Assembly (NCBI GenBank): GCA_025929425.1
Contig: JAICME010000007.1
Span: 1-42,603, forward strand
From: Thermoleophilia bacterium
GTDB lineage: Bacteria > Actinomycetota > Thermoleophilia > Gaiellales > Gaiellaceae
Length of the DNA: 42,603 nt
Direction: 5' to 3'
The translations under genes and the position numbers were made by a program. The notes under the pieces are model-generated. The model did not search any database. It saw only the letters and a list, made by a program, of their open reading frames with translations, and was not told where the DNA came from. Of this stretch, positions 15,262 through 33,983 are shown in pieces (the first letter of the stretch is position 1; each line of letters opens with the position of its first letter).

Positions 15262-15264
15262 ACT
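15236..15264 (+). promoter_or_regulatory. Promoter of the 15273 operon, inside the divergent gntR gene
   Basis: TTGACG (15236-15241), a 17-bp spacer and CATACT (15259-15264) make a good housekeeping promoter. The -10 ends 8 bp before the ATG at 15273, so the transcript should be leaderless or nearly so. The promoter lies within the first codons of the divergent repressor gene. The AT-rich patch ATACTAGCACTACAT (15260-15274) covering the -10 and both starts is the likely operator region; the symmetry is too poor to define a half-site. Confidence 0.6.
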
Positions 15265-15272
15265 AGCACTAC

Positions 15273-17293: not shown

Positions 17294-17297
17294 CAGC

Positions 17298-18377: not shown

Positions 18378-18523
18378 CAGGAAACCGAACACCGCAGCTG
18401 GAGCAGCCGCCGGTACGCCAAACAACAGCACAGGTCCGCCTAGGCAACGCTCGCTCGGGCCGGTGCTCCGGAAAGACATCTGGAGGCGGAGAAAGAACCT
18501 GCGCGCCGGACACCACGAGCAAG

Positions 18524-18549
18524 TAACGATTCTCGGGGCGTCGGCCGTC
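18524..18549 (+). promoter_or_regulatory. Variant island promoter before the sigma gene at 18559
   Basis: TAAC (18524-18527), 18 bp, CGTC (18546-18549), then the GTG 13 nt after the first base of CGTC. This is the spacing of the island element GGAC-N18-CGTA (22 nt from first base to first base) with changes in both boxes. It also fits the general AAC...CGTC form of ECF promoters. Confidence 0.4.
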
Positions 18550-18558
18550 TAAGCTGTT

Positions 18559-19937: not shown

Positions 19938-19978
19938 ATACCGAACCCGCCCGCTAAGACCGCTCCCTAGCCGCCAAA

Positions 19979-19992
19979 GCCGGTCCACCGGC
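19979..19992. terminator. Weak hairpin between convergent genes
   Basis: GCCGG-TCCA-CCGGC forms a 5-bp stem with a 4-base loop in the 158-bp gap between the convergent genes ending at 19937 and 20096. There is no T run on either side, so it could only be a weak, factor-assisted terminator. Confidence 0.2.
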
Positions 19993-20095
19993 CGGCCTCC
20001 GTCGTCAGTCGAGGGTGAACGGGTGAGGTGCTCCGTGGCTTGCCGCGTCGAACGGTCGGAACCACTCGTTGAACTTGAGACCGACCACAGCGTGC

Positions 20096-21052
20096 TCAGT
20101 CGAGGTGAGCGAGCACGGCCGTGCGGAGGGTTCGAGAATCGATGCGGATCACGGTGTAGCCGGGCGCGGTTCGGCTGAGGGGAACGATCACTGTTGCGAC
20201 CCAGATGACTTGGGGCTTGACGATGAGTGCGTCGGCGCTGCCGGGGATGTCGATGTGTCCGGTGCGACGGCCGCTGCGTTGATCGATGCGGACGAGTGTG
20301 GTGTGTGCGCCGCTGTTGCTGAGTGCCCAGAGGGCGCCGTCGCCGGCCGCGAGGTCGTGCTGGAAGCCACTGAGGCGTAGTTGGCCGGTGTGGAGGGTGC
20401 GGGTTCTGCCGGTGCGCTCGTCGATCCGGACGATGCTGCGGCCTTGGGGAAGCCAGACCGCGCCGGCGCCGGTCGTGAGATCGCCGAGGCGGGCTCGCAG
20501 GACGTGGTGGATGCGTCCGCCGGGGTCGATGTGGAGGAGCCGGTGGTCGGTGGAGATCCAGCAGCCGGTGGCGTCGGCGGCGATGCGACCGGCGTCGGGA
20601 ATGCTCCAGCTACGGCTCAGCTGGCCGGCTAGGCTGAAGCGGGCGATCCGCGTCCGGACCGGCGCGGTGGTTGAGCCGATGAGCACCCAAACGCCGCCAG
20701 CCCCGGCTGCGACGTACTGGACGGAGTGATTGGCCTTGCGCCAGAGCACGCGCGTCTTGCGGGTGCGCTCGTCGATGCGGGTGAGTGTGCCGTCGAGGTA
20801 GCCGTTCTCGACGCTCGCGACCCAGACTGCGCCGCCGGCCATGGCGACGCTGAGGGGATAGGCGGCGCCGACGAGCTGCGGGCTGGCGAGCAGGCGGCCG
20901 GTGCGAGCGTCGAACTCGCGCACGCCCGGCTCGCCGACGAACCAGACGCGGCCGTTGCCCGCAGCAAGGTCGAGGAAGTCGCCGCCCGCCCGGGCCGGCG
21001 AGGCGACGAGCAGCAGGGCGGCCGTCGCGAGCAGACCGACCGCGAACTTCAC
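20096..21052 (-). CDS. Secreted Vgb-like beta-propeller protein
   Basis: This 318-residue protein starts with a clear signal peptide (FAVGLLATAALLLVASPARAGG, cleavage after ARA). It then has repeats of the form GNGRVWFVGEPGVREFDARTGR, GGAVWVASVENG, GGVWVLIGST, GAVWLPQGRSIVRIDERTGRT and GALWALSNSG, about 40-45 residues apart. This is the G-x-x-W-V/L pattern of YVTN/Vgb-type propellers. No Vgb lyase catalytic histidine can be assigned. The GTG start overlaps the stop of the upstream propeller gene (GTGA), so both come from the promoter at 22173-22198. Confidence 0.8.
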   Translation of the reverse strand: MKFAVGLLATAALLLVASPARAGGDFLDLAAGNGRVWFVGEPGVREFDARTGRLLASPQLVGAAYPLSVAMAGGAVWVASVENGYLDGTLTRIDERTRKTRVLWRKANHSVQYVAAGAGGVWVLIGSTTAPVRTRIARFSLAGQLSRSWSIPDAGRIAADATGCWISTDHRLLHIDPGGRIHHVLRARLGDLTTGAGAVWLPQGRSIVRIDERTGRTRTLHTGQLRLSGFQHDLAAGDGALWALSNSGAHTTLVRIDQRSGRRTGHIDIPGSADALIVKPQVIWVATVIVPLSRTAPGYTVIRIDSRTLRTAVLAHLD

Positions 21053-22164
21053 GTGCTCGCGAGCCGACGCGGGGCGCCGCCGCGGGTGACCGTCCAGACG
21101 AACCCGTCGGCGACGGCGAGCCGAACGCCGACAGGGACAGGCAGCCGTTGGAGGATCCTGCCGCTGGCGGGGTCGATCCGCTCGAGCAGCCTGCCCTCAA
21201 CGCGTCCGACCCAGAGCGAGCCGGCGCCGTAGGCGGCCACGAGCTGTCCGGCCGGAAGGGGGGTGATTCCTTGCACGCGGTTGTGAGCCGTGTTGATGCG
21301 GGCCAGGCCGTTGCGATTCGTAAGCGTGCCGCTGCTCGTCCACTCGCCCAGCGCGAGTAGGCGCTTTCCTGCCGGCAGGAGTTGCCCCAGATCGAGACGG
21401 CCGCGGGCGGGGCCGATCGGGATTCGTGCCACGACGCGGTTGGTGTGGCTGTCGACCCGGTAGAGGCCGAGCATGCTCTCGCTCAACCAGACGGCCCCGG
21501 GTGCGGTCGCGATCGTCTGGAAGGCTTCCGGGGGGAGGCGCAGCATTCCGGTCAGCCGTCGCAGGCGCGCATCGGCTCTCGCGAGCGCGCCGCGATCGGT
21601 GGCGACCCAGACGCTGCCCTCACCGACGACGACCGCCTCCGGAAGGAAGGCCTTGCTGCGATAGCTGGAGGTGACGATGGAGAACGGAAGTTTCAGGTGC
21701 AGCGTCTTCGTCAGGCGTAGCGTCTGCCGCTCGAGCCGGCGCACGCTGCCCCGTTCGAAGTCGGTCACATAGATCCCCTCGGGACCGACAGCGATCGCGC
21801 CGGGGTGCGCAAGCTTCACTGAGTCGATCACCTTGTTCGTGCGCGGGTCGATCTCGATCACTCGGCCGACACTCCGCTTCGCTTCGCCTGAGCATCCGTG
21901 GTCGCAGGTCAGCAGCCAAAGCAAGCCGTGGGCGGAAAGGAGCTGAAGCGGCGCACCGCTCAAGCGCGGCCGACTAGCCACCGCTGCGCTCTCCGATCCT
22001 GCTACTCCGACCAGAACGACGGTCAGCAGGAGGCAGGCGACGATCCCGCCGCGTCGCAACAGCGATTGCCACTGTGTCCGCGCGCCGCGAAGGGCAGGCT
22101 GACGGCGCGGACGGCCAGTCGACAGCAGGGGCAGAGCGAGACGCCCGACGGTCGCAACACGCAT
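21049..22164 (-). CDS. Secreted or anchored Vgb-like beta-propeller protein
   Basis: From ATG 22164 this is a 371-residue protein. A basic N-terminus (about 38 residues) precedes a hydrophobic helix (GIVACLLLTVVLVGVAG) that may be a long signal peptide or an anchor. The exported part has propeller repeats: GLLWLLTCDHGCSG, GRVIEIDPRTNKVIDSVKL, EGIYVTDFERGSV, GSVWVATDRGAL, GAVWLSESMLGLYRVDSHTNRV and GSLWVGRVEGRLLERIDPASGR. The frame is open to 23103, but the extra 313 residues are out-of-frame reading of divergent genes. ATG 22164 is set by the promoter element exactly 12 nt upstream. It is co-transcribed with 20096-21052. Confidence 0.8.
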   Translation of the reverse strand: MRVATVGRLALPLLSTGRPRRQPALRGARTQWQSLLRRGGIVACLLLTVVLVGVAGSESAAVASRPRLSGAPLQLLSAHGLLWLLTCDHGCSGEAKRSVGRVIEIDPRTNKVIDSVKLAHPGAIAVGPEGIYVTDFERGSVRRLERQTLRLTKTLHLKLPFSIVTSSYRSKAFLPEAVVVGEGSVWVATDRGALARADARLRRLTGMLRLPPEAFQTIATAPGAVWLSESMLGLYRVDSHTNRVVARIPIGPARGRLDLGQLLPAGKRLLALGEWTSSGTLTNRNGLARINTAHNRVQGITPLPAGQLVAAYGAGSLWVGRVEGRLLERIDPASGRILQRLPVPVGVRLAVADGFVWTVTRGGAPRRLAST

Positions 22165-22172
22165 TCTCTCTC

Positions 22173-22198
22173 TACGGGGGAACGCCCGCAGCCAGTCC
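22173..22198 (-). promoter_or_regulatory. Island promoter GGAC-N18-CGTA before propeller gene 22164
   Basis: On the minus strand GGAC (22198-22195), 18 bp, CGTA (22176-22173), and the ATG 12 nt after the first base of CGTA. It is one of four exact copies in the island, all before propeller genes. There is no ribosome binding site between it and the start. Confidence 0.65.
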
Positions 22199-22247
22199 CG
22201 GCACTTGGCTGGGAACTTTTCAGCCTGCCGTCGACAATACGGTTGTA

Positions 22248-22838
22248 GTGAGTGCGCGGGCTGGCTCGGGGGCGGTGGAAGACGCGGTCGTGATTTCGCG
22301 TTCTGTGCGGATGCCGCAGGCCTTCGAGGCGATTTTCGACCGGCACTTCGACGCGGTGCACGGGTATCTGGCCCGGCGTGCCGGTCGCGAGCGTGCGGAC
22401 GATCTTGCGTCGCAGACGTTCGTGGTGGCGTTTGCGCGGCGGGCCACATTCCGGTCTGACGCCTCCGATGCGCGGCCGTGGCTGTTGGGGATCGCGACCA
22501 ACCTCTTGTCGAACGACCGGCGTGCCGAGCGGCGGCTGCTGGAGACGTTGTCGCGGGTTCGCGGCGACGCGCGGGTAGCAGTCGTTCAGGTCGGCTCGGT
22601 AGGCGAGTCGGATCGTGATGTGGCGGCCGCCTTGGCGGGGCTCGATCCTGCGCAGCGCGACGTGCTGCTGTTGCACGCCTGGGGCGAGCTCTCCTATGAG
22701 GAGATCGCCGACGTGCTCGGGATACCGCTCGGAACCGTGCGCTCGAGGCTCTCGCGCGCTCGCGCGAGCTTGCAGGCCGAGCTCGAGACGGTGGACGCAG
22801 CCCCTCCAATAGCCCGAACACAGCGGGAGGTCTGGTGA
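22248..22838 (+). CDS. ECF RNA polymerase sigma factor (4 of 6)
   Basis: The protein is 196 residues from GTG 22248, or 175 from ATG 22311 (MPQAFEAIFDRHFDAV, a more typical ECF start). Region 2 has FDRHFDAVHGYLARR, LASQTFVVAFARR, ARPWLLGIATNLLSNDRR; region 4 has LDPAQRDVLLLHAWGELSYEEIADVLGIPLGTV and a helix-turn-helix. The family is that usually linked to CU044_5270 proteins, and such a gene follows with a GTGA overlap. GGAACTT at 22212-22218 looks like an ECF -35, but no matching -10 lies at the right distance. The start is uncertain; the frame runs open to 22074 into the divergent gene. Confidence 0.88.
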   Translation: MSARAGSGAVEDAVVISRSVRMPQAFEAIFDRHFDAVHGYLARRAGRERADDLASQTFVVAFARRATFRSDASDARPWLLGIATNLLSNDRRAERRLLETLSRVRGDARVAVVQVGSVGESDRDVAAALAGLDPAQRDVLLLHAWGELSYEEIADVLGIPLGTVRSRLSRARASLQAELETVDAAPPIARTQREVW

Positions 22839-23917
22839 TCGACGAGCTACAGCGAGTGAAGGAGTTTCGCATCTCAGAGCCAGCGCCCAGCGAGGCGGCG
22901 CGGAATGCGGCGCGGGCAGCGCTGGTCCGCGCGATCGCGGAGGGGAACACCCAGTCCCGTCCGGGGAGGCGTTGGCGCGTTCCCCGTTTGCGGGCGATGG
23001 CGATCGTGGCAGCCGCGGTGGCCACGGCTGTGGCCCTGCTCGGCGTGTTCGGCTGGGGCGGTTCGCCGGCCGGGCCGTCGCCGGCCGCGGCAGCCGTTCT
23101 CAACCGGCTCGCGCGGCTGATCGCCGCGCAGCCGCTGACGCCGCAGCCCGGCCAGTATCTGTACGTCGAGTCCAGGTCGGACTATCCGAGCTTCAGCGGC
23201 AGCTGTGAGACGCTCGCCGTCGATCATCGCCAGATCTGGATCGGGACGGACGGCTCGGGACTGATACGCGAGAGCAGGGGGCCCGAGCGTTTCAGCTCGG
23301 CGGCCGACCGCGCCGCCTGCCTGCAGGCGGATCCCAAGATGCAGCTGCGGAGCGGCGCTACGAGTAATGACTGGTTCGCACCGCAATGTCTGGCTCTAGG
23401 GCCGACGAACGATTGGAACAGCCTTTCCAGCGACCCGCAGGTGCTGCTCCAGCAGATGCGGCAAATCGACGGCGGGCCAGCGACGCCCGGGGAGGACTTC
23501 GTCCACATCGGCGACTTCCTCCGCGAAACCGACGCCCCACCCGCGGTGCGTGCCACCCTCTACCGAGCCGCCGCGCTGATCCCCGGCATCCAGCTGCTGG
23601 GCACGGTACGCGACCACGACGGGCGGTCGGGCCTCGGCATCGCCTACCCCTCGCAGGGGCCGTACGCCTCGAGCGGATCCAGTTCCGAGTTGATCTTCGA
23701 CCCGCAGACCGGAGAGCTGCTTGGCGAACAAGGCACCGGACCCCAATACTGGGCCGTCTACCTGCGCGAGCAAGTCGTCAGCGCGCTCCCAAGCAAGCCG
23801 CCGGCACCGCTCAAGCCCCCCTGCGTCAACACCGGCGGGACGGTCAAGCAGATACCGGGCGGCTCGATAACAACCGGCGCTGGCCTGAACGCAACCCCGA
23901 CGCCAGCCAACCCCTGA
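22835..23917 (+). CDS. CU044_5270-family membrane protein, sigma-factor partner
   Basis: This 360-residue protein has a cytoplasmic N-terminus (DELQRVKEFRISEPAPSEAARNAARAALVRAI), a transmembrane helix (about 50-70) and a long exported region with AAVLNRLARLIAAQP..QYLYVESRS, VDHRQIWIGTDGSGLIRES, LLQQMRQIDGG and ALIPGIQLLGTVRDHDGRSGLGIAY then LIFDPQTGELLGEQ. These elements in this order are the CU044_5270 family, widespread in actinobacteria after ECF sigma genes. The exported domain recalls lipoprotein-localisation folds. It is GTGA-coupled to sigma 4. The function in the family is not established; membrane-linked control of the sigma factor is inferred. Confidence 0.85.
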   Translation: MIDELQRVKEFRISEPAPSEAARNAARAALVRAIAEGNTQSRPGRRWRVPRLRAMAIVAAAVATAVALLGVFGWGGSPAGPSPAAAAVLNRLARLIAAQPLTPQPGQYLYVESRSDYPSFSGSCETLAVDHRQIWIGTDGSGLIRESRGPERFSSAADRAACLQADPKMQLRSGATSNDWFAPQCLALGPTNDWNSLSSDPQVLLQQMRQIDGGPATPGEDFVHIGDFLRETDAPPAVRATLYRAAALIPGIQLLGTVRDHDGRSGLGIAYPSQGPYASSGSSSELIFDPQTGELLGEQGTGPQYWAVYLREQVVSALPSKPPAPLKPPCVNTGGTVKQIPGGSITTGAGLNATPTPANP

Positions 23918-23989
23918 CGGCGAAGGGAACCGGCCCGGTTCCACCGGCTGCCGCCGACCTGGCGGGAACGCTCGAGGATCGGGTGCGCG

Positions 23990-24015
23990 GGACTTCTCAG
24001 CCGAGGTGCCGCGTA
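23990..24015 (+). promoter_or_regulatory. Island promoter GGAC-N18-CGTA before propeller gene 24023
   Basis: GGAC (23990-23993), 18 bp, CGTA (24012-24015), with GTG 24023 beginning 11 nt after the first base of CGTA. The preceding bases GCGCGG resemble GCGTGG before the copy at 25240. No ribosome binding site follows. Confidence 0.65.
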
Positions 24016-24022
24016 CTGATTT

Positions 24023-25195
24023 GTGATGGGCTCGGCGTTGTTCGCGGCTGTGCTTGCCTCGGCGGTCTTGCCCTCGCACGGGTGCAGGGCACCGCTTCCG
24101 CAGGGACCGGCGGTGCCTGCGGCGATCGTCGTTCGGACAAGCTGCGGCTGGTTTGACGTCAAGCCGAGCGGTCGGGTGCGGCGTCTGCCTCGCAGCCCCG
24201 TCGGGTTCGGCAGGGGCCGAATCGCCGAGGACGGCAGCCGCCACTACGGAGCTGACCTCTTCATCCGCCGCACCCATCCCGGCCGGTTCATCGTCTGGCG
24301 CCTCCGCCGCACACCCGCCGGACGGCTCACCCGCACCGTGATCTGGCATTCGTCCCGCGACTACTACAACACCGGCGGCGACAACGCCTTCGGCCCGCAC
24401 CTGTTCGCTTTCGACGACTACTACCACGGCATCTTCCTCACCGACTTGCGTCATCCGGAGCGGATGGTGATGCGCGGACGCGGGCTCTATCCAATCGGCT
24501 TCACCCGTGGTGGCGACCTCCTGATCTCGATGCGCGGATACTCGATCGCGGTCGTCGCCCCTACCGGCAGGCTGCTTCGCCGCTTCTCCTACAGCGGCCG
24601 CAACTCATTCACCTGGGACGAACACACCGACACGCTCTACTTCGTCCGACCCGACGGGATGCTCGCCGCCGCCCACGGCGCCCACGTACGCCTCATCCGC
24701 CGCCTGACCGGGATCGAGGGCGGGATCTGGTTCACGCCGCCCGGCCTCCTCGTCTTCAACGGACGGCGCAGCGTCACGATCACCGACCTCGACGGAAAGC
24801 TCATCGCCCGAGACCGATGGCCGCGCACAGCGATCGACAACTTCGACTCCGGGCTCAGCGTCTCGCCCGACGGCCGCACCTTCGCCTTCCGCCTATCCAG
24901 CGCCCACCCCGGGGCAAGGCACGGAAAAGCCGTCCTCTACGTCCTCCATGCGGGACAGTCGGAGGCCCGCGCGATCTACCGGCATCAGCTCGGCCCCAGC
25001 GGCTGTGCGGTCGGTGCCAGCATGGAATGGCACGGCCGCTACCTGCTCTACAGCTCCGCCGACGGACAACGCGCGGTCCTCGACACCAGCACCGGTCGCC
25101 AGATCAGCCTGATGCGCCTCCTCCACCGGATCCCGCAGCGTGGCCGCTCTCAGGTCTACGACGTCTTCTGGCGAAGCAACCTCGCGCGCCGCTAG
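24023..25195 (+). CDS. Secreted beta-propeller-like protein
   Basis: This 390-residue protein has a short signal sequence (SALFAAVLASAVLPSHGC, possibly a lipoprotein-like end) and then propeller-type strands: GGDLLISMRGYSIAVVAPTGRLLRRF, TDTLYFVRPDGMLAAAHG, GIWFTPPGLLVFNGRRSVTITDLDGKL, LSVSPDGRTFAFRLS and GRYLLYSSADGQRAVLDTSTGRQISLM. The SPDG...FAF element is shared with the TolB-like proteins. The start could be GTG 24023 or ATG 24026. It carries its own island promoter. No enzyme motif is visible. Confidence 0.75.
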   Translation: MMGSALFAAVLASAVLPSHGCRAPLPQGPAVPAAIVVRTSCGWFDVKPSGRVRRLPRSPVGFGRGRIAEDGSRHYGADLFIRRTHPGRFIVWRLRRTPAGRLTRTVIWHSSRDYYNTGGDNAFGPHLFAFDDYYHGIFLTDLRHPERMVMRGRGLYPIGFTRGGDLLISMRGYSIAVVAPTGRLLRRFSYSGRNSFTWDEHTDTLYFVRPDGMLAAAHGAHVRLIRRLTGIEGGIWFTPPGLLVFNGRRSVTITDLDGKLIARDRWPRTAIDNFDSGLSVSPDGRTFAFRLSSAHPGARHGKAVLYVLHAGQSEARAIYRHQLGPSGCAVGASMEWHGRYLLYSSADGQRAVLDTSTGRQISLMRLLHRIPQRGRSQVYDVFWRSNLARR

Positions 25196-25239
25196 GCGCG
25201 CCGTCTCGACGCCCGCCGATCGACGGGCCAGGACGCGTG

Positions 25240-25265
25240 GGACTCGCGACCGCTGCTGTGCCGTA
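25240..25265 (+). promoter_or_regulatory. Island promoter GGAC-N18-CGTA before propeller gene 25274
   Basis: GGAC (25240-25243), 18 bp, CGTA (25262-25265), and GTG 25274 12 nt after the first base of CGTA. With the copy at 23990 it shares GCGYGGGACT at the -35. A 5-bp hairpin (GCCCG/CGGGC, 25211-25228) lies just upstream and may end the previous transcript. Confidence 0.65.
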
Positions 25266-25273
25266 TCTCAGTT

Positions 25274-26647
25274 GTGCTTGTGCGAGGCGCATTGGTCTTC
25301 TTGGGCGCTGCCGGCCTGCTGGCGCTGCTGGGCGCCGCGCCGGGGACGCACTCGAGCGGACACCTCGGCGTGCTGCCGTTGCGGCAGGCAGCACCGACCT
25401 TCGGAGGACGGTTGTTCGGCTTCGCGTACGGGTCGTCGACGACGCGGCTGGCGCGGATCGATCCGGCGACGCTGCGAGCGTTGCCTGGCCGGTCGCCGCC
25501 TCTTCCTGGTGTTCTGGCTTGGGCGGCCTCGCCGGATCGCTCGCGGCTCGCGGTCGCCGAGTGTGGTCGAGGGAGCAGCTGTCGTGGGCTGGTGCAGCTG
25601 TTCGCGATGCCGTCGATGCGGCCGCTGGGGCGGAGGATTGCGATCGGTCCGCCGGCGGTCGCTTTGTCCTGGGCTGGAAACGATCGCCTGCTTGTGCTGG
25701 CCGGCCACTGTTGTGCCGGCAGCGCGGAGGTCGTCAGCCTCTCCGCGCACTCGGGCACGGTGAGTGAGCGGCGGCGGGTGCCAGGCACGGTCGTCCGCTA
25801 TGCGCGCAGCAAGACCGGGTTCGTCCTGCTGGCCGCTCCGCGCAACAGGATCGGTGTTGCCGAACTCGTGGTTGCCGACGGACTTCGACTGCGGACGGTG
25901 AAGCTCGCCCGAGTCGAGGCGGGCTTCGTACCGGGAGGCATTCGCAACGCGGCGATCAGCACCGACCGCTTCCCAGGCCTCGCACTCGATTGCAGCAGCC
26001 GTCGTGCCTACGTCGCAGACCCCGACGGAACCATTGCCACCGTCTCGCTCCGTTCGCTCAAGGTCTTCTACCACCGGCCAAGCACGAGCCGGACCCTGTT
26101 CGAGCGTCTCGGCAGCTGGCTGGAGCCGACCGCCCAGGCCAAAGGCGATCGAGGACCGTGGCGGCAGGCGCAGTGGCTCGGCGACGGGCTGCTCGCCGTG
26201 ACCGGCATCGATTGGCACGCCACTGGAAGCGTGAGCGGCAATGTGATCTCGGAGACGCTGCACGAGCGGCCGGCCGGCCTCGAGATCGTCAACACGCGAA
26301 CCTGGCAGCAACAGACACTCGACCCCAACGCCGACACGATCAGGGTCACAGACGGCCTGCTGCTCGCGACCGGAACCCGCTGGGACGTCACGCCAGGCAG
26401 GAACCGAACCAGCGGCGAAGGGCTCATCGCCTACGACGCGCAGGGCGGTGTTCGCTTCCGCCTGTTCGCCGGCCGCTCGGTCTACGTCAACGTGGTGATC
26501 GAGCGACACGCGTACGTCACCGTCACCGCACCCTCCGGCCACCATCACGAGTACAGCGTTGACCTACGTACGAGGAGCGTGACCGCGAGACCGGACTCCG
26601 AGTGGCCGTGGCTCCTCCTCGGCGCCGCCCAACCTGACAGCGGCTGA
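25274..26647 (+). CDS. Secreted beta-propeller-like protein, paralogue of the broken gene at 29604
   Basis: This 457-residue protein has a signal peptide (ALVFLGAAGLLALLGAAPG), then propeller strands: TTRLARIDPATLRALPG, LAWAASPDRSRLAVAECG, ALSWAGNDRLLVLAG, LALDCSSRRAYVADPDGTIATVSLRS, AQWLGDGLLAVTG and GLEIVNTRTWQQQTLDP. It aligns along its length with the frameshifted gene at 29604-30963 (for example SWLEPTAQAKG against NWLTPAALAKG, and QWLGDGLLAVTG against QWLGDGLIALTG). It is driven by its own GGAC-N18-CGTA promoter. Its role is unknown; an exposed binding or sensing protein is inferred. Confidence 0.78.
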   Translation: MLVRGALVFLGAAGLLALLGAAPGTHSSGHLGVLPLRQAAPTFGGRLFGFAYGSSTTRLARIDPATLRALPGRSPPLPGVLAWAASPDRSRLAVAECGRGSSCRGLVQLFAMPSMRPLGRRIAIGPPAVALSWAGNDRLLVLAGHCCAGSAEVVSLSAHSGTVSERRRVPGTVVRYARSKTGFVLLAAPRNRIGVAELVVADGLRLRTVKLARVEAGFVPGGIRNAAISTDRFPGLALDCSSRRAYVADPDGTIATVSLRSLKVFYHRPSTSRTLFERLGSWLEPTAQAKGDRGPWRQAQWLGDGLLAVTGIDWHATGSVSGNVISETLHERPAGLEIVNTRTWQQQTLDPNADTIRVTDGLLLATGTRWDVTPGRNRTSGEGLIAYDAQGGVRFRLFAGRSVYVNVVIERHAYVTVTAPSGHHHEYSVDLRTRSVTARPDSEWPWLLLGAAQPDSG

Positions 26648-26812
26648 CCGTCGCGGGCGCAGGCCTTCGGCGACCCGCGGCCCACGGCCGGAAGACAGAG
26701 CCTGGCTGGGGTACGCGCCTGCCGTATACGTGAGTGGTTCTCGGCGGCGGCTGTAATGAATCGGGCTTCGTGAGCGATGTAGGGGTGAAACTCGCGTCTC
26801 AGGAGGCCCGCG

Positions 26813-27685
26813 ATGACGACCCACTCTGAACCTGTCGATCCTCCGCTCGAGCTGCTGCGCCGGCTCAACCCGGTTCCGGAGGCTCCCGTCACACCGGGAG
26901 TCGACGAAGCGCTCGGCGAGGTCGTGCGCGCGATCATGCGCCAGCCTCATACGACGTGTCGGAGCGCCCTCAGTTCTCGTCTCAAGATTGCGGTCGCCGC
27001 GGGGGTTGTGGTTCTGATCGTCGTGGGTGTTGCCACTGCGGCCGTGGTCCTCCACGCCCACACCGGCTTGTTCCCCAGCGGTCCGAACGCGTCGGTCGGT
27101 GGTCCCGGCGAGGAGCTGAACCTAGCGGCGCCGGACTTCGGGAGCGTGGCGCTGAAGCTGTCGGCGGGCATTCCCTATCCGGCCGGCTATGCCTCCTGGC
27201 GCCAATCCGTCGTGACTGAGCAGCTGCCGGGCCCAGGCGGCGCGGCCGCAGGTGATCAGGTGACGACGGGCGCGGTGCGCGGCTCGTTCGCGGCCAGCGC
27301 CTTCTGCGCCTGGGTGCAGGACTGGCGCCAAGCTGTACAAGGCGGCAACTCCGCCGAGGTCAACCGGGCCGCCACGACAATCGCAGCGGCGCCGGGCTGG
27401 AGCGCGGTAACCGCTGAGGACCCGCATCCCAGCGCGACGGGTCCGAACGATCCCGGCGCGGAACCAGGGACACTGTTCGGCTGGATGCTCCCGTATCGCA
27501 GCGCCGTCCTCGCCGGAAATACGGCCGGGGTGGATCAGCTGCTCGCGAGCGGCTACGGGGACGGCAAGTGCTGGTTGAGCGATCCAGCCTGGATGACGCT
27601 GTGGCGCGTGCACGGGCAGGAGTGGCGCACACAGAGCCAGCTGGCGGAGCACTACCGACAGTTCCTCGCCCAGGAGCGCCCATGA
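26813..27685 (+). CDS. Single-pass membrane protein preceding sigma factor 5
   Basis: This 290-residue protein has a cytoplasmic N-terminus (PLELLRRLNPVPEAPVTPGVDEALGEVVRAIM), a transmembrane helix (57-80) and an exported domain with AFCAWVQDWRQAVQGGN, GTLFGWMLPYRSAVLAGNTAGVDQLLASGYGDGKCWL and a C-terminal LAEHYRQFLAQE. The start has a strong AGGAGG at 26801-26806, unlike the leaderless propeller genes. It overlaps the sigma gene by 4 bp (ATGA), but here the membrane gene comes first. No domain could be named. The 165 bp upstream show no GGAC-N18-CGTA element; CGTATACG at 26723-26730 is a small palindrome. Confidence 0.75.
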   Translation: MTTHSEPVDPPLELLRRLNPVPEAPVTPGVDEALGEVVRAIMRQPHTTCRSALSSRLKIAVAAGVVVLIVVGVATAAVVLHAHTGLFPSGPNASVGGPGEELNLAAPDFGSVALKLSAGIPYPAGYASWRQSVVTEQLPGPGGAAAGDQVTTGAVRGSFAASAFCAWVQDWRQAVQGGNSAEVNRAATTIAAAPGWSAVTAEDPHPSATGPNDPGAEPGTLFGWMLPYRSAVLAGNTAGVDQLLASGYGDGKCWLSDPAWMTLWRVHGQEWRTQSQLAEHYRQFLAQERP

Positions 27686-28290
27686 CACGGGCTAAGGAGG
27701 AGCGCGAAGCGAGCTTCGAGCGGCTCTTCGAGGCGACGCGCGCGGACATCCTCGCGTACAGCCTGCGGAGGGTGAGCCGTCCAGACGAGGCGGCGGATGT
27801 GCTGAGCGAGACGTTCCTGGTCGCCTGGCGGAAACGCGACGCGCTCCCGCCGGGCGACGAAGCTCGCCTCTGGCTCTTCGGGGTCGCGCGCAACGTTCTC
27901 CGACGAGGAGTAAGCCGAGAACGGGCGCTCCAGGTCGGGGTCGAGCGGCTGGCCGCCGAGCTCTCTGAGGCAGTATCGACCGGTGTGCCGGGGGAGGAAG
28001 AAGGATCGCCAAGGCTACGGGCCGCTCTGGAAGCTCTCCCCGAACGGCAGCGCGAGGCCATCCTCCTCACAGCCTGGGAGGGACTGAGCCCGCGGGAGAT
28101 TGCGGCCGTCACCAGAACCCCTGTGAATCTCGTCCGCGTCCGCCTCCACCGGGCCCGAACCCGGCTCAGACGGGAACTCGCCACCGAGGATCTGGAAGCG
28201 CCGACGAGAGAATCACCCGCCTCGCCCGGCGACTGCCCCCACCACAAGCTGCGTGTCCGAGCCGCTCTCGACTCGACTACGCAGCGGTAG
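27682..28290 (+). CDS. ECF RNA polymerase sigma factor (5 of 6)
   Basis: This 202-residue protein has region 2 (FERLFEATRADILAYSLRRV, AADVLSETFLVAWRKRD, ARLWLFGVARNVLRRG) and region 4 (ALEALPERQREAILLTAWEGLSPREIAAVTRTPVNLVRVRL over its helix-turn-helix). A tail of about 35 residues follows (APTRESPASPGDCPHHKL). AGGAG at 27672-27676 precedes the ATG, which overlaps the upstream stop. The family is close to sigma 4. It converges with 28297-28965, with 6 bp between the two stops. Confidence 0.92.
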   Translation: MTRAKEEREASFERLFEATRADILAYSLRRVSRPDEAADVLSETFLVAWRKRDALPPGDEARLWLFGVARNVLRRGVSRERALQVGVERLAAELSEAVSTGVPGEEEGSPRLRAALEALPERQREAILLTAWEGLSPREIAAVTRTPVNLVRVRLHRARTRLRRELATEDLEAPTRESPASPGDCPHHKLRVRAALDSTTQR

Positions 28291-28296
28291 CCGGGG

Positions 28297-28965
28297 TCAG
28301 CCGAGAGTCTGGGCGAGCGTATTGGCGGCCGTCTCCGTGAGGTGTTTGCCTTCGAGGCGGAGGGTGAGGTGGCCGTCGTGCCAGAGCAGGACCGCGTGGG
28401 CGAGCCGCGGTGGACCGCTGGGAAGGATGAAGAGGTGCGGTGCGCCGGAAAGCCAGAGGCCCGCGTTGTGGCCGACCTGTACGGGCACGATGTGAGTGGC
28501 CGAGCCGGCGAGCTTCTTGACCAAGACGCCGTTGCGGTCGGAGATCTCGGAGAGCAGCACGACCGCGCCGTGGTAGCGGAAGAGCAGAGAGACGATCCCG
28601 TCCCTCAGGTGCAGCGGTGGCGGCGGCGCGAGCGGGGGGAGAAGGAGCATGCCCTGCAGGGTCGCTTGGGCGGCGGCGGTGGGGACGGTCGGGCCGAGTC
28701 CGGCTGCGAGGGGCCGCTCCTGCGCTGGGGGTAGCTGTTCGACGATCTGGACGGTCGCGGCTCCGAGGTGGAAGAAGCGGAGGATGGCCGCCCGCGACGG
28801 CGGGACGGCGAGCGCAGCCGCGATCGCAGTCAGGCTGAGCGCGAGGGCTGCGAGGACTGGCCGTCGCAGCTCGCGCCGGCGAGGCTCGAGCCGTGGCCGC
28901 AGCGTCGGGGTGGGCGGCCAAGCGATCTCGCTTGCCAGCGCGTGCAGCTCAGACTCGAGTTGCAT
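28297..28965 (-). CDS. Single-pass membrane protein, sigma-factor partner
   Basis: This 222-residue protein begins ESELHALASEIAWPPTPTLRPRL, a cytoplasmic motif seen before the anchor in many sigma-linked proteins, then a transmembrane helix (35-54), then an exported domain rich in prolines around residues 110-120 and ending LFILPSGPPRLAHAVLLWHDGHLTLRLEG. The C-terminal part resembles DUF4367-type domains. No zinc motif is present. It overlaps the 3' end of the sigma gene 28949-29503 by 17 bp, so it is co-translated and probably modulates that sigma factor. Confidence 0.78.
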   Translation of the reverse strand: MQLESELHALASEIAWPPTPTLRPRLEPRRRELRRPVLAALALSLTAIAAALAVPPSRAAILRFFHLGAATVQIVEQLPPAQERPLAAGLGPTVPTAAAQATLQGMLLLPPLAPPPPLHLRDGIVSLLFRYHGAVVLLSEISDRNGVLVKKLAGSATHIVPVQVGHNAGLWLSGAPHLFILPSGPPRLAHAVLLWHDGHLTLRLEGKHLTETAANTLAQTLG

Positions 28966-29503
28966 AGGTCTCCCTCAGTCGGTCGAGCGCACGCGCGGTG
29001 CGCGACTTGACGGTGCCCCTGCGGAGGCCGAGCGCTGCCGCGGTCTCGCGCTCGGAGAGGTCGAGCAGGTAGCGACACTCGAGCACCAGACGGGCGTCGT
29101 CGGGCAGCTGCTCGAGCGCGGCGAGCAGCAGTTCTCGCTCCGAGCCGGCCAGGGTCGCCTCCTCGGGCGAGGGGGCCGCCTCGCCCGAGAAGTCTGCGGC
29201 CGCGCGGAGCGCGAGCTGCGCCCTGCGGCCACTCGCGCGGCTGCGGTTTCGCGCCTCGTTGGCGACGATCCGCAGGAGCCAGGGCCGCAAAGGTGCGCCA
29301 GCCCGGAAGCGGCCGAGTCCGCGCCAGGCCTTGACGAGCGCCTCTTGGGCGGTGTCTTCGGCATCGGCTGGGTTGCGGGTGATCAGGTAGGCCACTCTGA
29401 ACGCGAGCTCCTGGTGCGGCGAGACGAGGTCTTCGAACGCGCGCATGTCGCCGCGACGCGCGCGCAGCACGAGCTCCCGCTCGTCCGGTGGACGGCCCTC
29501 CAC
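28949..29503 (-). CDS. ECF RNA polymerase sigma factor (6 of 6)
   Basis: From GTG 29503 this is 184 residues: ERELVLRARRGDMRAFEDLV, LITRNPADAEDTAQEALVKAWRGL, LRPWLLRIVANEARNRSRA (region 2) and ALEQLPDDARLVLECRYLLDLSERETAAALGLRRGTVKSR (region 4, split by helices). The frame is open to 29821, overlapping the divergent gene, so the longer form is unlikely. GTG 29503 lies 13 nt after the start of a YGTA box and fits the island promoter rule; GTG 29524 is the alternative. It is followed by 28297-28965. Confidence 0.9.
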   Translation of the reverse strand: MEGRPPDERELVLRARRGDMRAFEDLVSPHQELAFRVAYLITRNPADAEDTAQEALVKAWRGLGRFRAGAPLRPWLLRIVANEARNRSRASGRRAQLALRAAADFSGEAAPSPEEATLAGSERELLLAALEQLPDDARLVLECRYLLDLSERETAAALGLRRGTVKSRTARALDRLRETYATRV

Positions 29504-29512
29504 TCCCCCGAC

Positions 29513-29538
29513 TACACCGACCACCCCGAGAGGGTTCC
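29513..29538 (-). promoter_or_regulatory. Variant island promoter before sigma gene 29503
   Basis: On the minus strand GGAAC (29538-29534), 17 bp, TGTA (29516-29513), and GTG 29503 13 nt after the first base of TGTA. The distance between first bases is 22, as in the exact GGAC-N18-CGTA copies. GGAAC is a classical ECF -35. Confidence 0.45.
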
Positions 29539-29569
29539 ATGCGGGCCCGGCTTCTACTCGGAGCAGGAC

Positions 29570-29595
29570 GGAACCTGTGCGCCCGCGCCGGTGTA
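29570..29595 (+). promoter_or_regulatory. Variant island promoter before propeller gene 29604
   Basis: GGAAC (29570-29574), 17 bp, TGTA (29592-29595), and ATG 29604 12 nt after the first base of TGTA. It is the same variant as the divergent copy at 29513-29538, with the same 22-nt offset as the exact copies. Confidence 0.45.
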
Positions 29596-29603
29596 TGAGG
29601 AGG

Positions 29604-30963
29604 ATGCGACGCCTCGTGCTCCTCCTCGGTTGTTCCATCGCGGTCGCAGCCGTGGCGGTGACCCTGGCAGCGGGCTGGAACCAGTGGCGTTCGCTGCTGC
29701 CACTGCACGCGCCGACCAGGGCGACACCGAGCCTGACCGCAGTCCTGTCGGACGACAGTGGTTCGCGGCTCGCGCAGATCGAGCCGGCGACCTTCGCGCG
29801 GCTCCGCGCCTCTGCGCGCATGACCTACTACGAGGGCTGGGTGCGCTCCCCCGACGGGAGGCTGCTCGCCGTCTCCACCAACCCCGACTCGAACGACGTC
29901 AGCTACTCGACGCTCCACTTCGCGACCGTCTCGAGCCTTCGCTGGCAGCCTCCTGGCGTCAGGCTGAACGGCTACTTCGACGCCGCGATCTGGCCCCGTC
30001 CCATAGCGCTGTACGCGCTCGTCGGCGACTACAGCGGACCCGGCCTGACACTCGACAAGATCGACGTAGCGGCGAGGAAGATCGTCGCGCAGACCAGGCT
30101 CCCCGGACCGGTACTCGACATCCAGCGCTCGGCGAAAGGCCTCGTCGTGCTCGAGGGCGGAAAGAACAACGCAATCAGCCCTGCCCGGCTGCTCATCCTC
30201 GACGCGGATGGCGCCGTCCGCTCCCTGCGTCTCGCACGGATCCTCGCCGGCACCCACTTCGACCAGTCGGCCCAGGACCCGATCGGCACCATCCGCGAGC
30301 CGGGCCTCGCGGTCGACCCGTCCCACGCCGTGGCCTACGTCCTCGACCCGGACGGACTCGTCGCCGCCATAGGCTTACGCGACCTCGCCGTCACCTACCA
30401 CCGGCTCGGACACAAGTCGCTAGTGGCGCGTCTGTCCAACTGGCTGACGCCTGCAGCCCTGGCCAAAGGCGCGAACGGACCGATGCTGACCGCGCAGTGG
30501 CTCGGCGACGGGCTGATCGCACTGACCGGCAACAACGAGTCCACATCAAGGCACAAGGACGGCAGCCTCGACTTCTCGATCCAGCCAGCAGGGCTGGCGC
30601 CTCGTCGACACCCGACACTGGCGCGTCCGCACACTCGACCCGCAAGCCGACAGCCTGCTCGTCGCCAACGGAGTGATGCTCGCCAGCGGCGGCAGCTCGC
30701 ACTCCAACAGCAACGGCTCGACCAACTCGGGCGAGGGCATCGCCGCGTACAACCCGAACGGATCGCTCCGCTGGCGGCTCGATCCAGGAAAGAGCGCCCA
30801 GCTGGTCGCCGCGTACGGGAACCGAGCGCTCGTCCAGTTCGACACCACATCCGGCCTGGGACCGCTCCAGCTCGTCAACCTCGCAACCGGACAGGTCGTC
30901 CGCCAGCTCCCCAGCAACAGCTACGCCACGCTCCTCCTCGGCAGCGGCTCCCACCAACCGTAA
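29604..30963 (+). pseudogene. Secreted beta-propeller-like protein broken by one frameshift
   Basis: A signal/anchor sequence (RRLVLLLGCSIAVAAVAVTLAAG) and propeller strands run from ATG 29604 in one frame through SLDFSIQPAGL at 30596. The continuation, LVDTRHWRVRTLDPQADSLLVANGVML to the stop at 30963, is in the next frame. Against the intact paralogue (GLEIVNTRTWQQQTLDP) there is one base too many in 30597-30603, GCGCCTC. The first frame continues as arginine/proline-rich nonsense to 31088. Either the gene is inactivated, or the base is a sequencing error, or the shift is programmed; no slippery heptamer is evident. With the shift corrected it would be about 452 residues. Confidence 0.78.
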
Positions 30964-30999
30964 GCCAGTCCAGCCAAGCCGCGCGGGTCAATCCTGTCC

Positions 31000-31025
31000 G
31001 GACCTGGTTGTCGCCCGCAACCGTA
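31000..31025 (+). promoter_or_regulatory. Island promoter GGAC-N18-CGTA before propeller gene 31034
   Basis: GGAC (31000-31003), 18 bp, CGTA (31022-31025), and GTG 31034 12 nt after the first base of CGTA. It is the fourth exact copy. It lies 37 bp after the stop of the frameshifted propeller gene. Confidence 0.65.
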
Positions 31026-31033
31026 AGAGGGGT

Positions 31034-32206
31034 GTGCGTGGCCGTCCCCCGCTTGTTCTCGTCGCCCTGGCGTCATTGCTGGCAGTAGGCGGCGGGGGCG
31101 CGAGCAGTTCGCTTGCCGCTGCTCGTGCCGCGTGCCGCTGGCAGCCCGCTTTGGTGCAAGACCCGCATCCGCACCTGTACGACCGATTCAACTCGGTGAC
31201 GGCCACGGCATCCGGGAAGGCTTGGGCGGTGGGCGAGTACTACACAGGCCACGAAGGAGGCCCTAACGGTGCGTTCATCGAGCAGTGGACGGGACGACGC
31301 TGGCATCTGGTGGGAAGACCGCTGCCCAACGCCTCGCTCTGGTCGGTATCGGCGTCCGGCCCGGACGATGCTTGGGCCGTGGGCGATCACCTACTCGAAC
31401 ACTGGAACGGCCATGCCTGGCGCAGAGTCGCTACGGCACCGGTTGGGGGCAACATCCTATGGGGCACCGCGACCCTCCGACCCGGGCAAACGTGGCTCGT
31501 CGGCGAGCGGTGGCGCGGTAAACGCAAGAACGGCAAGACGCTCGCCGAACGGTGGACCGGCACGCGTTGGGCCGTGGTCCCGACGCCGAACCCGCCTGCC
31601 GCAGGCCACCGCTACGACGCGATCCTGCAAGCCATCAGCATCCGTTCTGCCTCCGACGCGTGGGCCGTCGGCTACTGGCTCAGCGGGCCGCACATGCTGG
31701 TCTCGCGCACACTGATCGAGCACTGGGACGGGCGACGCTGGCGGCTTGTCCCCAGTCCGAGCGTCCGGGCCTCAAACGGCGTCCTCTACGACATTCTCTT
31801 CGCAGTCACTGCCGACCGCTCAGACGACGCCTGGGCGGTTGGCGCTTTCGAGCGTCACGCCGGAGGCTATGGCGGCGGAGGCGAACACGCACTCGTCCTG
31901 CACTGGAACGGACGGCACTGGTCGCGTGCCAGCGTGTTACCGAGCCGCGAGCGGACCTTCCTACATGGCGTCGTCGCCAGGCCGGGAAGTGCATGGGCCG
32001 TCGGTGATCGCGGCCTTCCGCCTCACCACCACCGCACCCTGATCGAACGGTGGGACGGAAAACACTGGAAAGTCGCTCAGGCGCCGGGCGGGTTCGATCT
32101 CGCCGGAGTCTCACAACCGGCCCGCAACAGGACGTGGGCGGTCGGCGCCGTCGGCCGCCGACCGCTCGCAGCACAACTCGTCTGCGCTTCACACAAGACG
32201 CAATAG
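31034..32206 (+). CDS. Secreted seven-repeat DAWAVG-type beta-propeller protein
   Basis: This 390-residue protein has a signal peptide (LVLVALASLLAVGGGGASSS) and then seven repeats built on AWAVG: GKAWAVGEY, DDAWAVGDH, GQTWLVGER, SDAWAVGYW, DDAWAVGAF, GSAWAVGDR and NRTWAVGAV. The first six are followed after about 15-40 residues by (I/L)E(H/R)W-(D/N/T)G-xxW. Seven such units would make one closed seven-bladed propeller. It has CxW near the mature N-terminus and one C-terminal cysteine. Its blade sequence differs from the TolB-like and Vgb-like proteins of the island, so at least three propeller types are present. No catalytic motif is visible. It is driven by its own island promoter. Confidence 0.82.
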   Translation: MRGRPPLVLVALASLLAVGGGGASSSLAAARAACRWQPALVQDPHPHLYDRFNSVTATASGKAWAVGEYYTGHEGGPNGAFIEQWTGRRWHLVGRPLPNASLWSVSASGPDDAWAVGDHLLEHWNGHAWRRVATAPVGGNILWGTATLRPGQTWLVGERWRGKRKNGKTLAERWTGTRWAVVPTPNPPAAGHRYDAILQAISIRSASDAWAVGYWLSGPHMLVSRTLIEHWDGRRWRLVPSPSVRASNGVLYDILFAVTADRSDDAWAVGAFERHAGGYGGGGEHALVLHWNGRHWSRASVLPSRERTFLHGVVARPGSAWAVGDRGLPPHHHRTLIERWDGKHWKVAQAPGGFDLAGVSQPARNRTWAVGAVGRRPLAAQLVCASHKTQ

Positions 32207-32212
32207 AAGAGG

Positions 32213-32928
32213 TCAAGTCGGCGCGTCTGGGTTGGCCGACTCCGGCGGCTCACCTGGCGGCGGGGCCCGGAGCTCGCGCTGGGCCGCGTAGGTCGTCCAG
32301 CCGCCAGAGTCGCTTCGCGTCTCGATGTCGGACCAGAGGATTTCGGCCTCGGCCGCGGCGTCGCGTACGAGGGCCGAGTCGATCTCGTTTCTCGTCTCGG
32401 GGATCTCAGCGGCGGGCCACTGACACACGAACGCGAGCGGGCCCTCGGGCGGAAGCGGCCAAACCCAGAATCCCTGAGACCACCGCCCGTCACCACCACC
32501 CCCGCCACGCGGAAAGAGCACCGGCCCCTCAGGGGCTCGTCCGGTTCTCCGGGCATCGGGAACCGCATCCGGTTCTCGATGTTTGTCGCCTTGCGGCCAT
32601 CGGAGAACTGGATCCCAAGCCGTAGAAGCTCTGGGTCGAGTCCCTCCTCCGGCGTACGACGCCGCCGCCGCGGATGGTGGGCGAAAAAGAACGGATGCCC
32701 GAACTCCTCTTCGTCAATGCGGCCGCGCAACTCAACGTCAAACTCAAATCCATCCGGGAAGGCCGTCACGGCGGGAATCCAGAGCGCCGCCTTATCGGAT
32801 CGACCAATCACAAGATTGAGCGCAACCGTCCTGCCGATCACCGCGTCGCGCGCCCCAGCCCAAGGTCGCCGCGGCGGCTCAGGCGGCGGCTCAGGCGGCG
32901 GCGAAGGCGGCTCGAAGAAAGACGACAT
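32213..32928 (-). pseudogene. Conserved actinobacterial protein of unknown function, frameshifted
   Basis: The frame from ATG 32928 reads MSSFFEPPSPPPEPPPEPP, then AGARDAVIGRTVALNLVIGRSD, FPDGFEFDVELRGRID, LRLGIQFSDGRKATN and MPGEPDEP at 32533. The rest (EGPVLFPRGGGGGDGRW, FWVWPLPPEGPLAFVCQWPA, and EIPETRNEIDSALVRDAA to the stop at 32213) lies in another frame. Restoring one C in the run at 32532-32535 joins the two parts into a 238-residue protein that looks whole. I recognise the WVWPLPPxGPLxFVCxWPA element from other actinobacterial hypothetical proteins, but no function is known. The homopolymer position makes a sequencing error as likely as true loss. It converges with 31034-32206. Confidence 0.72.
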
Positions 32929-33117
32929 CGCCCTAGTCTTCCATCGCTGCGGATCCACGGCGAATAGCCTCGCCTACGCGCGCGTCCTCCACGTCGAGTC
33001 TCCTGACGCACCGCGCGGTGGGTACCTCGTCCTCGCACGAGGTTCAAATACGTCACCAGAAAGTGTCCCAGCTTTTCCCGATGCGGGCCGTCGCTTCGTG
33101 CGTCGTAGACTCGGTGC

Positions 33118-33447
33118 GTGTCGGGCGGCAAGGAGACAGCGAGGGATCGGGGTGTATTGCGCGAGCAGCGTCGTCGCGCGCTGCAGCAGGCGAACCAGGT
33201 CCGATCGGAGCGGGCGAGGTTGAAGAAGGACCTGGCCACGGGCAAGGTTGGACTGACGGAGGTCCTGGCCCGGCCGCCCGCCTGCGTCCGGACAGCGAGG
33301 GTGAGCGACCTGCTGGTGGTGCTTCCGAAGATCGGGTCGGTCAAAGCGGGCCGGATCCTCACCCGGTGCGGCATTGCAGACTCGAAGACCCTCGCCGGTC
33401 TGACCGATCGTCAGCGGGCGGAACTGGCCAACCTCTTCCGGCGCTAA
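33118..33447 (+). CDS. mihF: Integration host factor, actinobacterial (mIHF/sIHF) type
   Basis: This 109-residue basic protein has the mIHF layout: a long N-terminal helix (LREQRRRALQQANQVRSERARLKKDL), then the helix-two-turns-helix domain VSDLLVVLPKIGSVKAGRILTRCGIADSKTLAGL and DRQRAELANLF. These match the family's SxLLxxLPGVGxxxAxxIMxxLGI and GLGxxQxxxL pattern. mIHF binds and bends DNA and was found as the host factor for integration of mycobacteriophage L5. The chromosomal copy usually sits beside gmk; this one sits alone beside the tRNA-proximal end of the island, so it may be an island-borne paralogue. The GTG start has TAGACT 6 bp before it and no ribosome binding site, so a very short leader is likely. 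Confidence 0.85.
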   Translation: MSGGKETARDRGVLREQRRRALQQANQVRSERARLKKDLATGKVGLTEVLARPPACVRTARVSDLLVVLPKIGSVKAGRILTRCGIADSKTLAGLTDRQRAELANLFRR

Positions 33448-33519
33448 ACCGAGTCAGCAGGGTTCACCAGGTCGGCCCTCCGCCGCCGCTCGACCACCAC
33501 CTGATCGGGTGCGCCTTCG

Positions 33520-33539
33520 TGTGGAAAACCTGTGGAAAC
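33520..33539 (+). repeat. Tandem TGTGGAAA repeat with 11-bp period
   Basis: TGTGGAAAA (33520-33528) and TGTGGAAAC (33531-33539) are separated by CC. The period of 11 bp puts both on one face of the helix, as for the TGGGCCAC tandem. Each differs by one base from the actinobacterial DnaA box read on this strand, so a replication or DnaA site is possible, but two copies are too few to call. Confidence 0.35.
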
Positions 33540-33728
33540 GCTTACCGGGCGGATGAGGCCGATAGGACGCCCCGTGAGATGCATCTATGCGGTCACCCAA
33601 ATTGCAGGCAGAGGGTGTCGGCCAACCGGTGGCGTTCGGCAACTCATAGCCATCGGCGCGGCCAGCCGGCGGTCACAAGGCCGATGACCTGGTTCCGTTT
33701 GTGTGGCCGGTGCACAAGCGGCGACCGG

Positions 33729-33744
33729 AAAGCGCGATTTGCAG
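33729..33744 (+). repeat. 16-bp repeat AAAGCGCGATTTGCAG, right copy
   Basis: This is identical to 9738-9753. It lies 101 bp inside the right island end and includes ATTTGCAG. Confidence 0.7.
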
Positions 33745-33763
33745 GTCTTTTACGATCTCAGGC

Positions 33764-33784
33764 TGGGCCACGATTGGACCACCA
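33764..33784 (+). repeat. Tandem TGGGCCAC element, right end
   Basis: TGGGCCAC, three bases, TGGACCAC, then CA. It matches 9928-9948 at 19 of 21 positions and lies 61 bp from the tRNA 3' end. In an excised circle the two copies would flank the core in direct orientation. Confidence 0.55.
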
Positions 33785-33823
33785 ACCACCGTTCTGGTGT
33801 CGTGGGCGACAACAGAAGTTGTT

Positions 33824-33832
33824 GATTTGCAG
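33824..33832 (+). repeat. GATTTGCAG, copy next to the tRNA
   Basis: This copy ends 13 bp before the tRNA-Asp 3' end. The corresponding chromosomal copy at 9745-9753 ends 12 bp before the left tRNA fragment, so both tRNA 3' ends have the word at nearly the same distance. Confidence 0.45.
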
Positions 33833-33845
33833 GGACGTTCCGAGA

Positions 33846-33919
<74 letters not shown>

Positions 33920-33983
33920 GCGGGACGGCCCAGTGTAGCGGGGCCGGTGTAGCGGGGCCGGTCTCGCCTCTACGCTGCGGTCG

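What the first reader, a model, noticed from the sequence alone, without database searches (positions are those of the whole stretch)
33118..33447. An mIHF-type integration host factor is the gene nearest the tRNA attachment site
mIHF is normally a chromosomal gene beside gmk and assists phage integration. Here a homologue stands alone inside an island that has lost or never had an integrase, within 400 bp of the inferred arm sites. It may be a mobile-element copy that serves recombination, or a nucleoid protein that silences island promoters.
Basis: partly seen in the sequence, partly recalled or inferred. Interest (0 to 1): 0.7.

Follow-up and report, generated by a model that had tools for sequence, protein, structure and literature searches.

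The report
Second, horizontally acquired mIHF on island
A soil actinobacterium carries, besides its normal copy, a second gene for the DNA-bending protein mIHF inside a genomic island next to a tRNA gene; this extra copy was acquired by horizontal transfer, but what it does for the island is unproven.

Summary
Observation confirmed. ORF 33118-33447 (+) is an actinobacterial-type IHF, above the curated NCBIfam cut-off, with a model matching the solved sIHF-DNA structures. The genome (a draft Solirubrobacterales MAG) has a second mIHF directly beside gmk and pyrD; it is only 53% identical and follows the genus tree (98% to the nearest congener). The window copy is not vertical. It forms a clade with two rare copies: a pseudogene in one congener and an intact gene in another family outside the order. 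Those two are 90% identical, while gmk-linked copies between the same groups are ~65% identical. Purifying selection is visible (dN/dS ~0.15). The island is real: a 48-nt tRNA-Asp 3' end is duplicated at 9764-9811 and 33844-33891, and ATTTGCAG, a likely integrase arm site, occurs four times in 42.6 kb, always within 110 bp of those cores. No integrase is encoded in the contig. The proposed roles (recombination helper or silencer) are untested; position favours the first. But other elements of the genome with the motif and an integrase lack an mIHF, and other extra mIHF copies almost never sit near integrases. Most likely it is an island-borne nucleoid protein working alongside host mIHF: a new member of a known kind.

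The parts
33118..33447 (+). accessory mIHF gene (mIHF2), 109 aa, GTG start
   Evidence: NCBIfam NF041260 75.7 bits; PDB 6tob/4itq by sequence; AF2 model pLDDT 87.7, Foldseek 6bek/4itq TM-score 0.89-0.90 normalised to the target
33106..33111 (+). TAGACT, -10-like hexamer ending 6 nt before the GTG; GAGAAT sits at the same place in the G344 copy, which would fit a leaderless mRNA (weak, by eye)
   Evidence: upstream sequences compared
33844..33920 (-). intact tRNA-Asp (GTC), the integration target
   Evidence: ARAGORN; same tRNA and right-flank genes in congeners
33844..33891 (-). attR core: 3' 48 nt of tRNA-Asp
   Evidence: direct repeat with 9764-9811
9764..9811 (-). attL core: truncated copy of the tRNA-Asp 3' end
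9812..33843 (.). 24-kb island between the two att cores
   Evidence: att duplication; the sequence beyond the tRNA 3' end is unrelated in four congeners
33736..33744 (+). GATTTGCAG, putative arm-type site, right end, distal
33824..33832 (+). GATTTGCAG, putative arm-type site, right end, proximal
9858..9865 (+). ATTTGCAG, putative arm-type site, left end of the island
9745..9753 (+). GATTTGCAG on the outer side of attL, within a 16-mer (AAAGCGCGATTTGCAG, 9738-9753) shared with 33729-33744: the end of a second, tandem element

Best explanation
The gene is a horizontally acquired, accessory paralogue of the actinobacterial integration host factor, carried at the tRNA-proximal end of a 24-kb island integrated in tRNA-Asp (shown). 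It encodes a small basic H2TH DNA-binding protein that keeps the mIHF fold and has been under purifying selection (shown). It most likely acts as an island-encoded nucleoid-associated protein that binds and bends DNA without strong sequence preference and adds to the pool made by the gmk-linked host gene, so helping the island's DNA and regulators fit into the recipient's chromatin; any help to Int-mediated recombination at the nearby att site would be one consequence of that general activity rather than a dedicated role (inferred).
For: Family and fold. A second, gmk-linked mIHF in the same genome. Separate clade with the G005 and G344 copies, support 95/94, while the gmk copy groups with congeners. 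G005 and G344 copies 90% identical at dS 0.13-0.17 although the gmk-linked copies between those groups are 64-65% identical. dN/dS about 0.15 (0.19/1.24) for window versus G344. Island borders. mIHF and sIHF bind DNA without sequence preference and compact or bend it: PMC3724605, PMC10028186. Actinobacterial plasmids carry mihF genes too; the six annotated neighbourhoods read show no annotated integrase.
Against: No expression, binding or phenotype data. Position next to the arm sites, in the slot that integrases occupy in two other islands of this genome and at the tRNA-Asp of G005, favours a more specific recombination role. One of the three known clade members is a pseudogene, so the gene can be dispensable. 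The clade has only three members, and the window copy sits on a long branch (0.53).
Confidence: 0.55

Rival explanations
1. A dedicated accessory factor for site-specific recombination: it bends the ~211-bp attP formed by the island ends so that an integrase can bridge arm and core sites, as host mIHF does for phage L5, freeing the element from dependence on the recipient's mIHF.
For: The gene ends 289 bp from the first arm site and 396 bp from the tRNA, in the slot next to the tRNA where integrases sit at C59 (tRNA-Thr), C148 (tRNA-Cys) and at the tRNA-Asp of congener G005. The three arm-like sites and core span 211 bp, close to the 240-bp L5 attP that needs mIHF (PMC4111918). One other extra mIHF, in G246, lies 0.3 kb downstream of a tyrosine recombinase.
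Against: Elements with the same motif in this genome (C59, C148) carry an integrase but no mIHF: the genome has only two mIHF genes. About 20 other non-gmk mIHF copies in the class almost never lie near integrases or tRNAs. Neither the G344 nor the G005 copy has an integrase or this motif on the stretches held next to it. Host mIHF is already present.
Confidence: 0.22
2. Passenger: an acquired mIHF gene retained by chance and decaying, with no role for the island.
For: The congener's copy is a pseudogene with a TAG and a frameshift; very patchy distribution, 3 of the roughly 440 class genomes searched; long branch of the window copy; stands alone, not in an operon.
Against: The window ORF is intact and scores above the equivalog cut-off; dN/dS 0.10-0.15 over the mIHF domain against G344; -10-like element at the same distance from the start in G344.
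Confidence: 0.17
3. A vertical or within-genome duplicate of the gmk-linked mIHF.
For: Same family; both proteins begin Val-Ser and share the lineage-typical SKTxxGL loop.
Against: 53% identity to the genome's own gmk copy against 71% to a copy from another family; separate clade 95/94; of 15 congeners, G005 alone has a trace of it, broken, and the rest none.
Confidence: 0.03
4. Assembly chimera or contamination of the MAG.
For: Draft MAG, 197 contigs, 3.3% contamination.
Against: The right flank (protease, MTHFR fusion, tRNA-Asp) is syntenic with congeners at 58-89% identity on the same contig; the att duplication explains the junction.
Confidence: 0.03

Closest known systems
mIHF/sIHF (M. 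tuberculosis Rv1388, S. coelicolor SCO1480; NCBIfam NF041260 mihF)
   Same: Same domain architecture and fold: long N-terminal helix plus H2TH; 36% identity to sIHF-DNA 6bek over 89 columns, TM-score 0.75 (query) to 0.89 (target).
   Different: Those are the gmk-linked chromosomal genes (mihF-gmk-rpoZ in M. tuberculosis, PMC6155035). This copy is island-borne, additional, in a separate clade, and has K-T-L-A where Mtb mIHF has R-R-L-R in the loop after the H2TH motif; the genome's own gmk copy has K-T-V-G, so that change is lineage-typical.
mihF genes on actinobacterial plasmids (Streptomyces, Rhodococcus, Tsukamurella, Dietzia)
   Same: Extra mIHF on mobile DNA, with no gmk among the annotated neighbours.
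   Different: They belong to the Actinomycetes side of the tree (100/98) and are at most 42% identical; the window copy is an independent case on an integrated island of Thermoleophilia.
Island- and plasmid-borne homologues of nucleoid proteins (H-NS family in EARL/ROD21 islands, Sfh, Lsr2 homologues; review PMC7074111)
   Same: Nucleoid-protein paralogue carried by a tRNA-integrated island alongside a chromosomal homologue.
   Different: Unrelated protein fold; mIHF binds without sequence preference and is not known as a xenogeneic silencer; the review's text does not mention mIHF.
Mycobacteriophage L5 integration system
   Same: tRNA 3'-end attachment (general knowledge), arm-like repeats flanking the core, attP of similar length (211 versus 240 bp, PMC4111918).
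   Different: L5 uses the host's mIHF and encodes its own integrase; here mIHF is on the element and no integrase is on the contig.

Membership tests
Actinobacterial integration host factor (mIHF, NF041260) | Sequence match above the curated cut-off over the whole domain | tested here: met
   75.7 bits against 60, residues 15-107 to model 7-101 of 102
Actinobacterial integration host factor (mIHF, NF041260) | mIHF fold with long N-terminal helix and H2TH | tested here: met
   AF2 pLDDT 87.7; Foldseek best hits 6bek, 4itq, 6tob
Actinobacterial integration host factor (mIHF, NF041260) | Non-specific DNA binding and bending | not testable with these tools
   Needs purified protein; net charge about +15, pI 11.6
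Actinobacterial integration host factor (mIHF, NF041260) | Linkage to gmk (chromosomal orthologue; a feature of the orthologue, not of the family) | tested here: not met
   Not linked; the genome's other copy is. So it is a paralogue or xenologue, not the orthologue
Horizontally acquired nucleoid-protein homologue on an island | Additional to a chromosomal homologue, on mobile DNA, with a discordant tree | tested here: met
Horizontally acquired nucleoid-protein homologue on an island | Affects transcription of island or host genes | not testable with these tools
   No expression data
Dedicated recombination accessory factor | Encoded with a cognate integrase and att site | tested here: inconclusive
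   att and arm-like sites present; no integrase on the contig, but the tandem left element is truncated by the contig start
Dedicated recombination accessory factor | Accessory copies generally associated with integrases | tested here: not met
   One of about 20 non-gmk class copies clearly beside a tyrosine recombinase; a second, G371, has a possible fragment noted by eye only

The most novel reading that the evidence does not exclude
The island brings its own mIHF as a dedicated architectural factor for a family of integrases that share the ATTTGCAG arm motif but target different tRNAs, giving the element independence from the recipient's nucleoid proteins; island-encoded mIHF would then be an integration helper that travels with att sites, separable from the integrase.
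Probability: 0.18. Interest if true: 0.6.

Novelty: new member of a known kind. Interest (0 to 1): 0.4.

Why it matters
mIHF was discovered as a host factor that a phage needs for integration. A copy that has itself become mobile, and sits at an attachment site in one case, would let one ask whether elements bring their own architectural proteins to integrate in, or adapt to, hosts with diverged ones. It also extends island-borne nucleoid-protein paralogues, known for H-NS and Lsr2, to mIHF. In the papers searched I found no description of island- or plasmid-borne mIHF, although plasmid copies are annotated in public records.

Tried and rejected
Only-copy/vertical gene: rejected. Phage origin: no match in 50,697 phage records, none in IMG/VR, no PHROG family. 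Hidden integrase in the island: none by Pfam on the main island ORFs, by genome-wide PF00589, or by tblastn with local integrases. A closer source in the wider phylum: 396 sampled genomes gave nothing nearer than the class's own gmk copies. Arm motif next to the G005 and G344 accessory copies: absent. Empty site in congeners: four have the tRNA with the same right flank but unrelated DNA downstream, so the site is a hot spot and no clean empty site was found. Partial tRNA copy near the G344 and G005 genes: none seen.

Full report
OBSERVATION. The ORF at 33118-33447 (+) encodes 109 aa. It is an actinobacterial-type integration host factor: NCBIfam NF041260 at 75.7 bits with a cut-off of 60, Pfam H2TH_5, and sequence matches to the solved M. 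tuberculosis mIHF (6tob, E 2e-12) and S. coelicolor sIHF (4itq, E 2e-9). An AlphaFold model from four sequences (pLDDT 87.7) finds sIHF bound to DNA (6bek, 4itq) as its best structural matches, TM-score 0.89-0.90 normalised to the target, then 6tob.

ISLAND. tRNA-Asp lies at 33844-33920 on the minus strand. Its 3' 48 nt recur at 9764-9811 (54 nt at 94%, aligned), which delimits a 24-kb island, 9812-33843. ATTTGCAG occurs exactly four times in the window, all on the plus strand at 9746, 9858, 33737 and 33825, all within 110 bp of an att core; the expectation is 0.24 and no shuffle of 100 reached 4. In the whole genome GATTTGCAG occurs 12 times against one for the reversed pattern. Three of the other sites lie directly downstream of tRNA 3' ends: tRNA-Thr-CGT on C59 and tRNA-Cys on C148, each with a tyrosine recombinase nearby, and tRNA-Thr-GGT on C43. 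I read this as an arm-type site shared by several elements with different tRNA targets. In the window the motif has the opposite orientation relative to the tRNA from those three sites, so the reading stays an inference. The outer side of attL also carries the motif, within a 16-mer (AAAGCGCGATTTGCAG) shared with the right end, so the DNA left of 9758 looks like the end of a second, tandem element; its methyltransferase gene is absent from all 15 congeners searched. Congeners share the tRNA and the right flank but have unrelated DNA beyond the tRNA: a hot spot.

SECOND COPY AND TREE. The genome (86% complete MAG) has one other mIHF, at C53, directly upstream of gmk and downstream of pyrD, 53% identical to the window copy. 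Across the class most genomes have the gmk-linked gene, 46-56% identical to the window protein. Only two places encode something closer. In congener G005 there is a pseudogene (75% identical over residues 53-108, with a TAG and a frameshift). In G344, of a different family outside the order, there is an intact copy, 71% identical. In a tree of 113 rows the three form one clade (95/94), while the window genome's gmk copy groups with its congeners, 98% identical to the nearest. The tree has few columns and the bootstrap had not fully settled, so deeper forks are unsure. The G005 and G344 copies are 90% identical with dS 0.13-0.17, whereas G344's gmk copy is 64-65% identical to the gmk copies of the window's genus: horizontal transfer between distant hosts. 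Window versus G344 gives dN/dS 0.15 over residues 15-109 and 0.10 over residues 53-108, so selection has kept the protein.

FUNCTION. Shown: an intact, selected, mobile mIHF paralogue next to an att site. Inferred: what it does. Known mIHF and sIHF bind DNA without sequence preference and bend or compact it (PMC3724605; PMC10028186); mIHF was found as a factor for phage L5 integration, whose attP is 240 bp (PMC4111918). The joined ends of this island would make an attP of 211 bp with three arm-like sites, and mIHF2 occupies the slot next to the tRNA where integrases lie in sister islands and at the tRNA-Asp of G005 (L132). That is the case for a dedicated recombination role. Against it: no integrase on the contig; sister elements with motif and integrase lack mIHF; the G344 and G005 copies show no att, tRNA scar or integrase in the DNA available; of about 20 other non-gmk mIHF copies in the class, only the one in G246 lies clearly beside a tyrosine recombinase, with a possible recombinase fragment near the G371 copy (by eye); and in the plasmid neighbourhoods read, no annotated integrase lies near mihF. 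I therefore favour a general nucleoid-protein role for the island DNA, comparable in logic to island-borne H-NS and Lsr2 homologues (PMC7074111), with recombination help as a possible by-product.

VERDICT. The mechanism remains open. It is a member of the mIHF family by sequence and fold, not the gmk-linked orthologue, and a new member of a known kind, nucleoid-protein paralogues on mobile DNA.

Noticed in passing
window 9746, 9858, 33737, 33825; G000 C59:5941, C148:442, C43:7277: ATTTGCAG/GATTTGCAG marks tRNA attachment sites of several elements in this genome with different tRNA targets (Asp, Thr-CGT, Thr-GGT, Cys), probably an integrase arm site; orientation relative to the tRNA differs between the window and the other three.
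   Followed up: partly
window 1-9757: Apparent second element in tandem with the island, sharing the end sequence AAAGCGCGATTTGCAG; carries GH65 (3102-5459), a HAD hydrolase (2365-3105), a methyltransferase and two related universal stress proteins (8048-8551, 9013-9573).
   Followed up: partly
window 11254-22838: Four sigma-70 family (ECF-like) sigma factor genes (11254-11739, 12783-13346, 18559-19089, 22074-22838) with a GntR regulator and two PD40 beta-propeller proteins on one island.
   Followed up: no
window 22835-32206: Run of long ORFs with no Pfam match above cut-off; those tested against PHROGs also had none. Two share a 104-nt repeat at 77% (26104-26207 and 30428-30531).
   Followed up: no
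L159 2065-3677 (G246:C5); L161 (G371:C251); L205 (G391:C141): A second set of non-gmk mIHF genes, 79-82% identical to the G246 copy, in the family of G344; in G246 the gene lies 0.3 kb downstream of a tyrosine recombinase, in G371 an ORF looks like a recombinase N-terminal fragment.
   Followed up: partly
families f8, f10, f11, f12 of the class: Most genomes there carry a further divergent mIHF (30-40% identical to the window copy); G192 has two mIHF genes in tandem before gmk (L077/L088).
   Followed up: no
L132 7647-8828 (G005:C14): A tyrosine recombinase gene runs up to and into the 3' end of tRNA-Asp, at the same site as the window's island.
   Followed up: no
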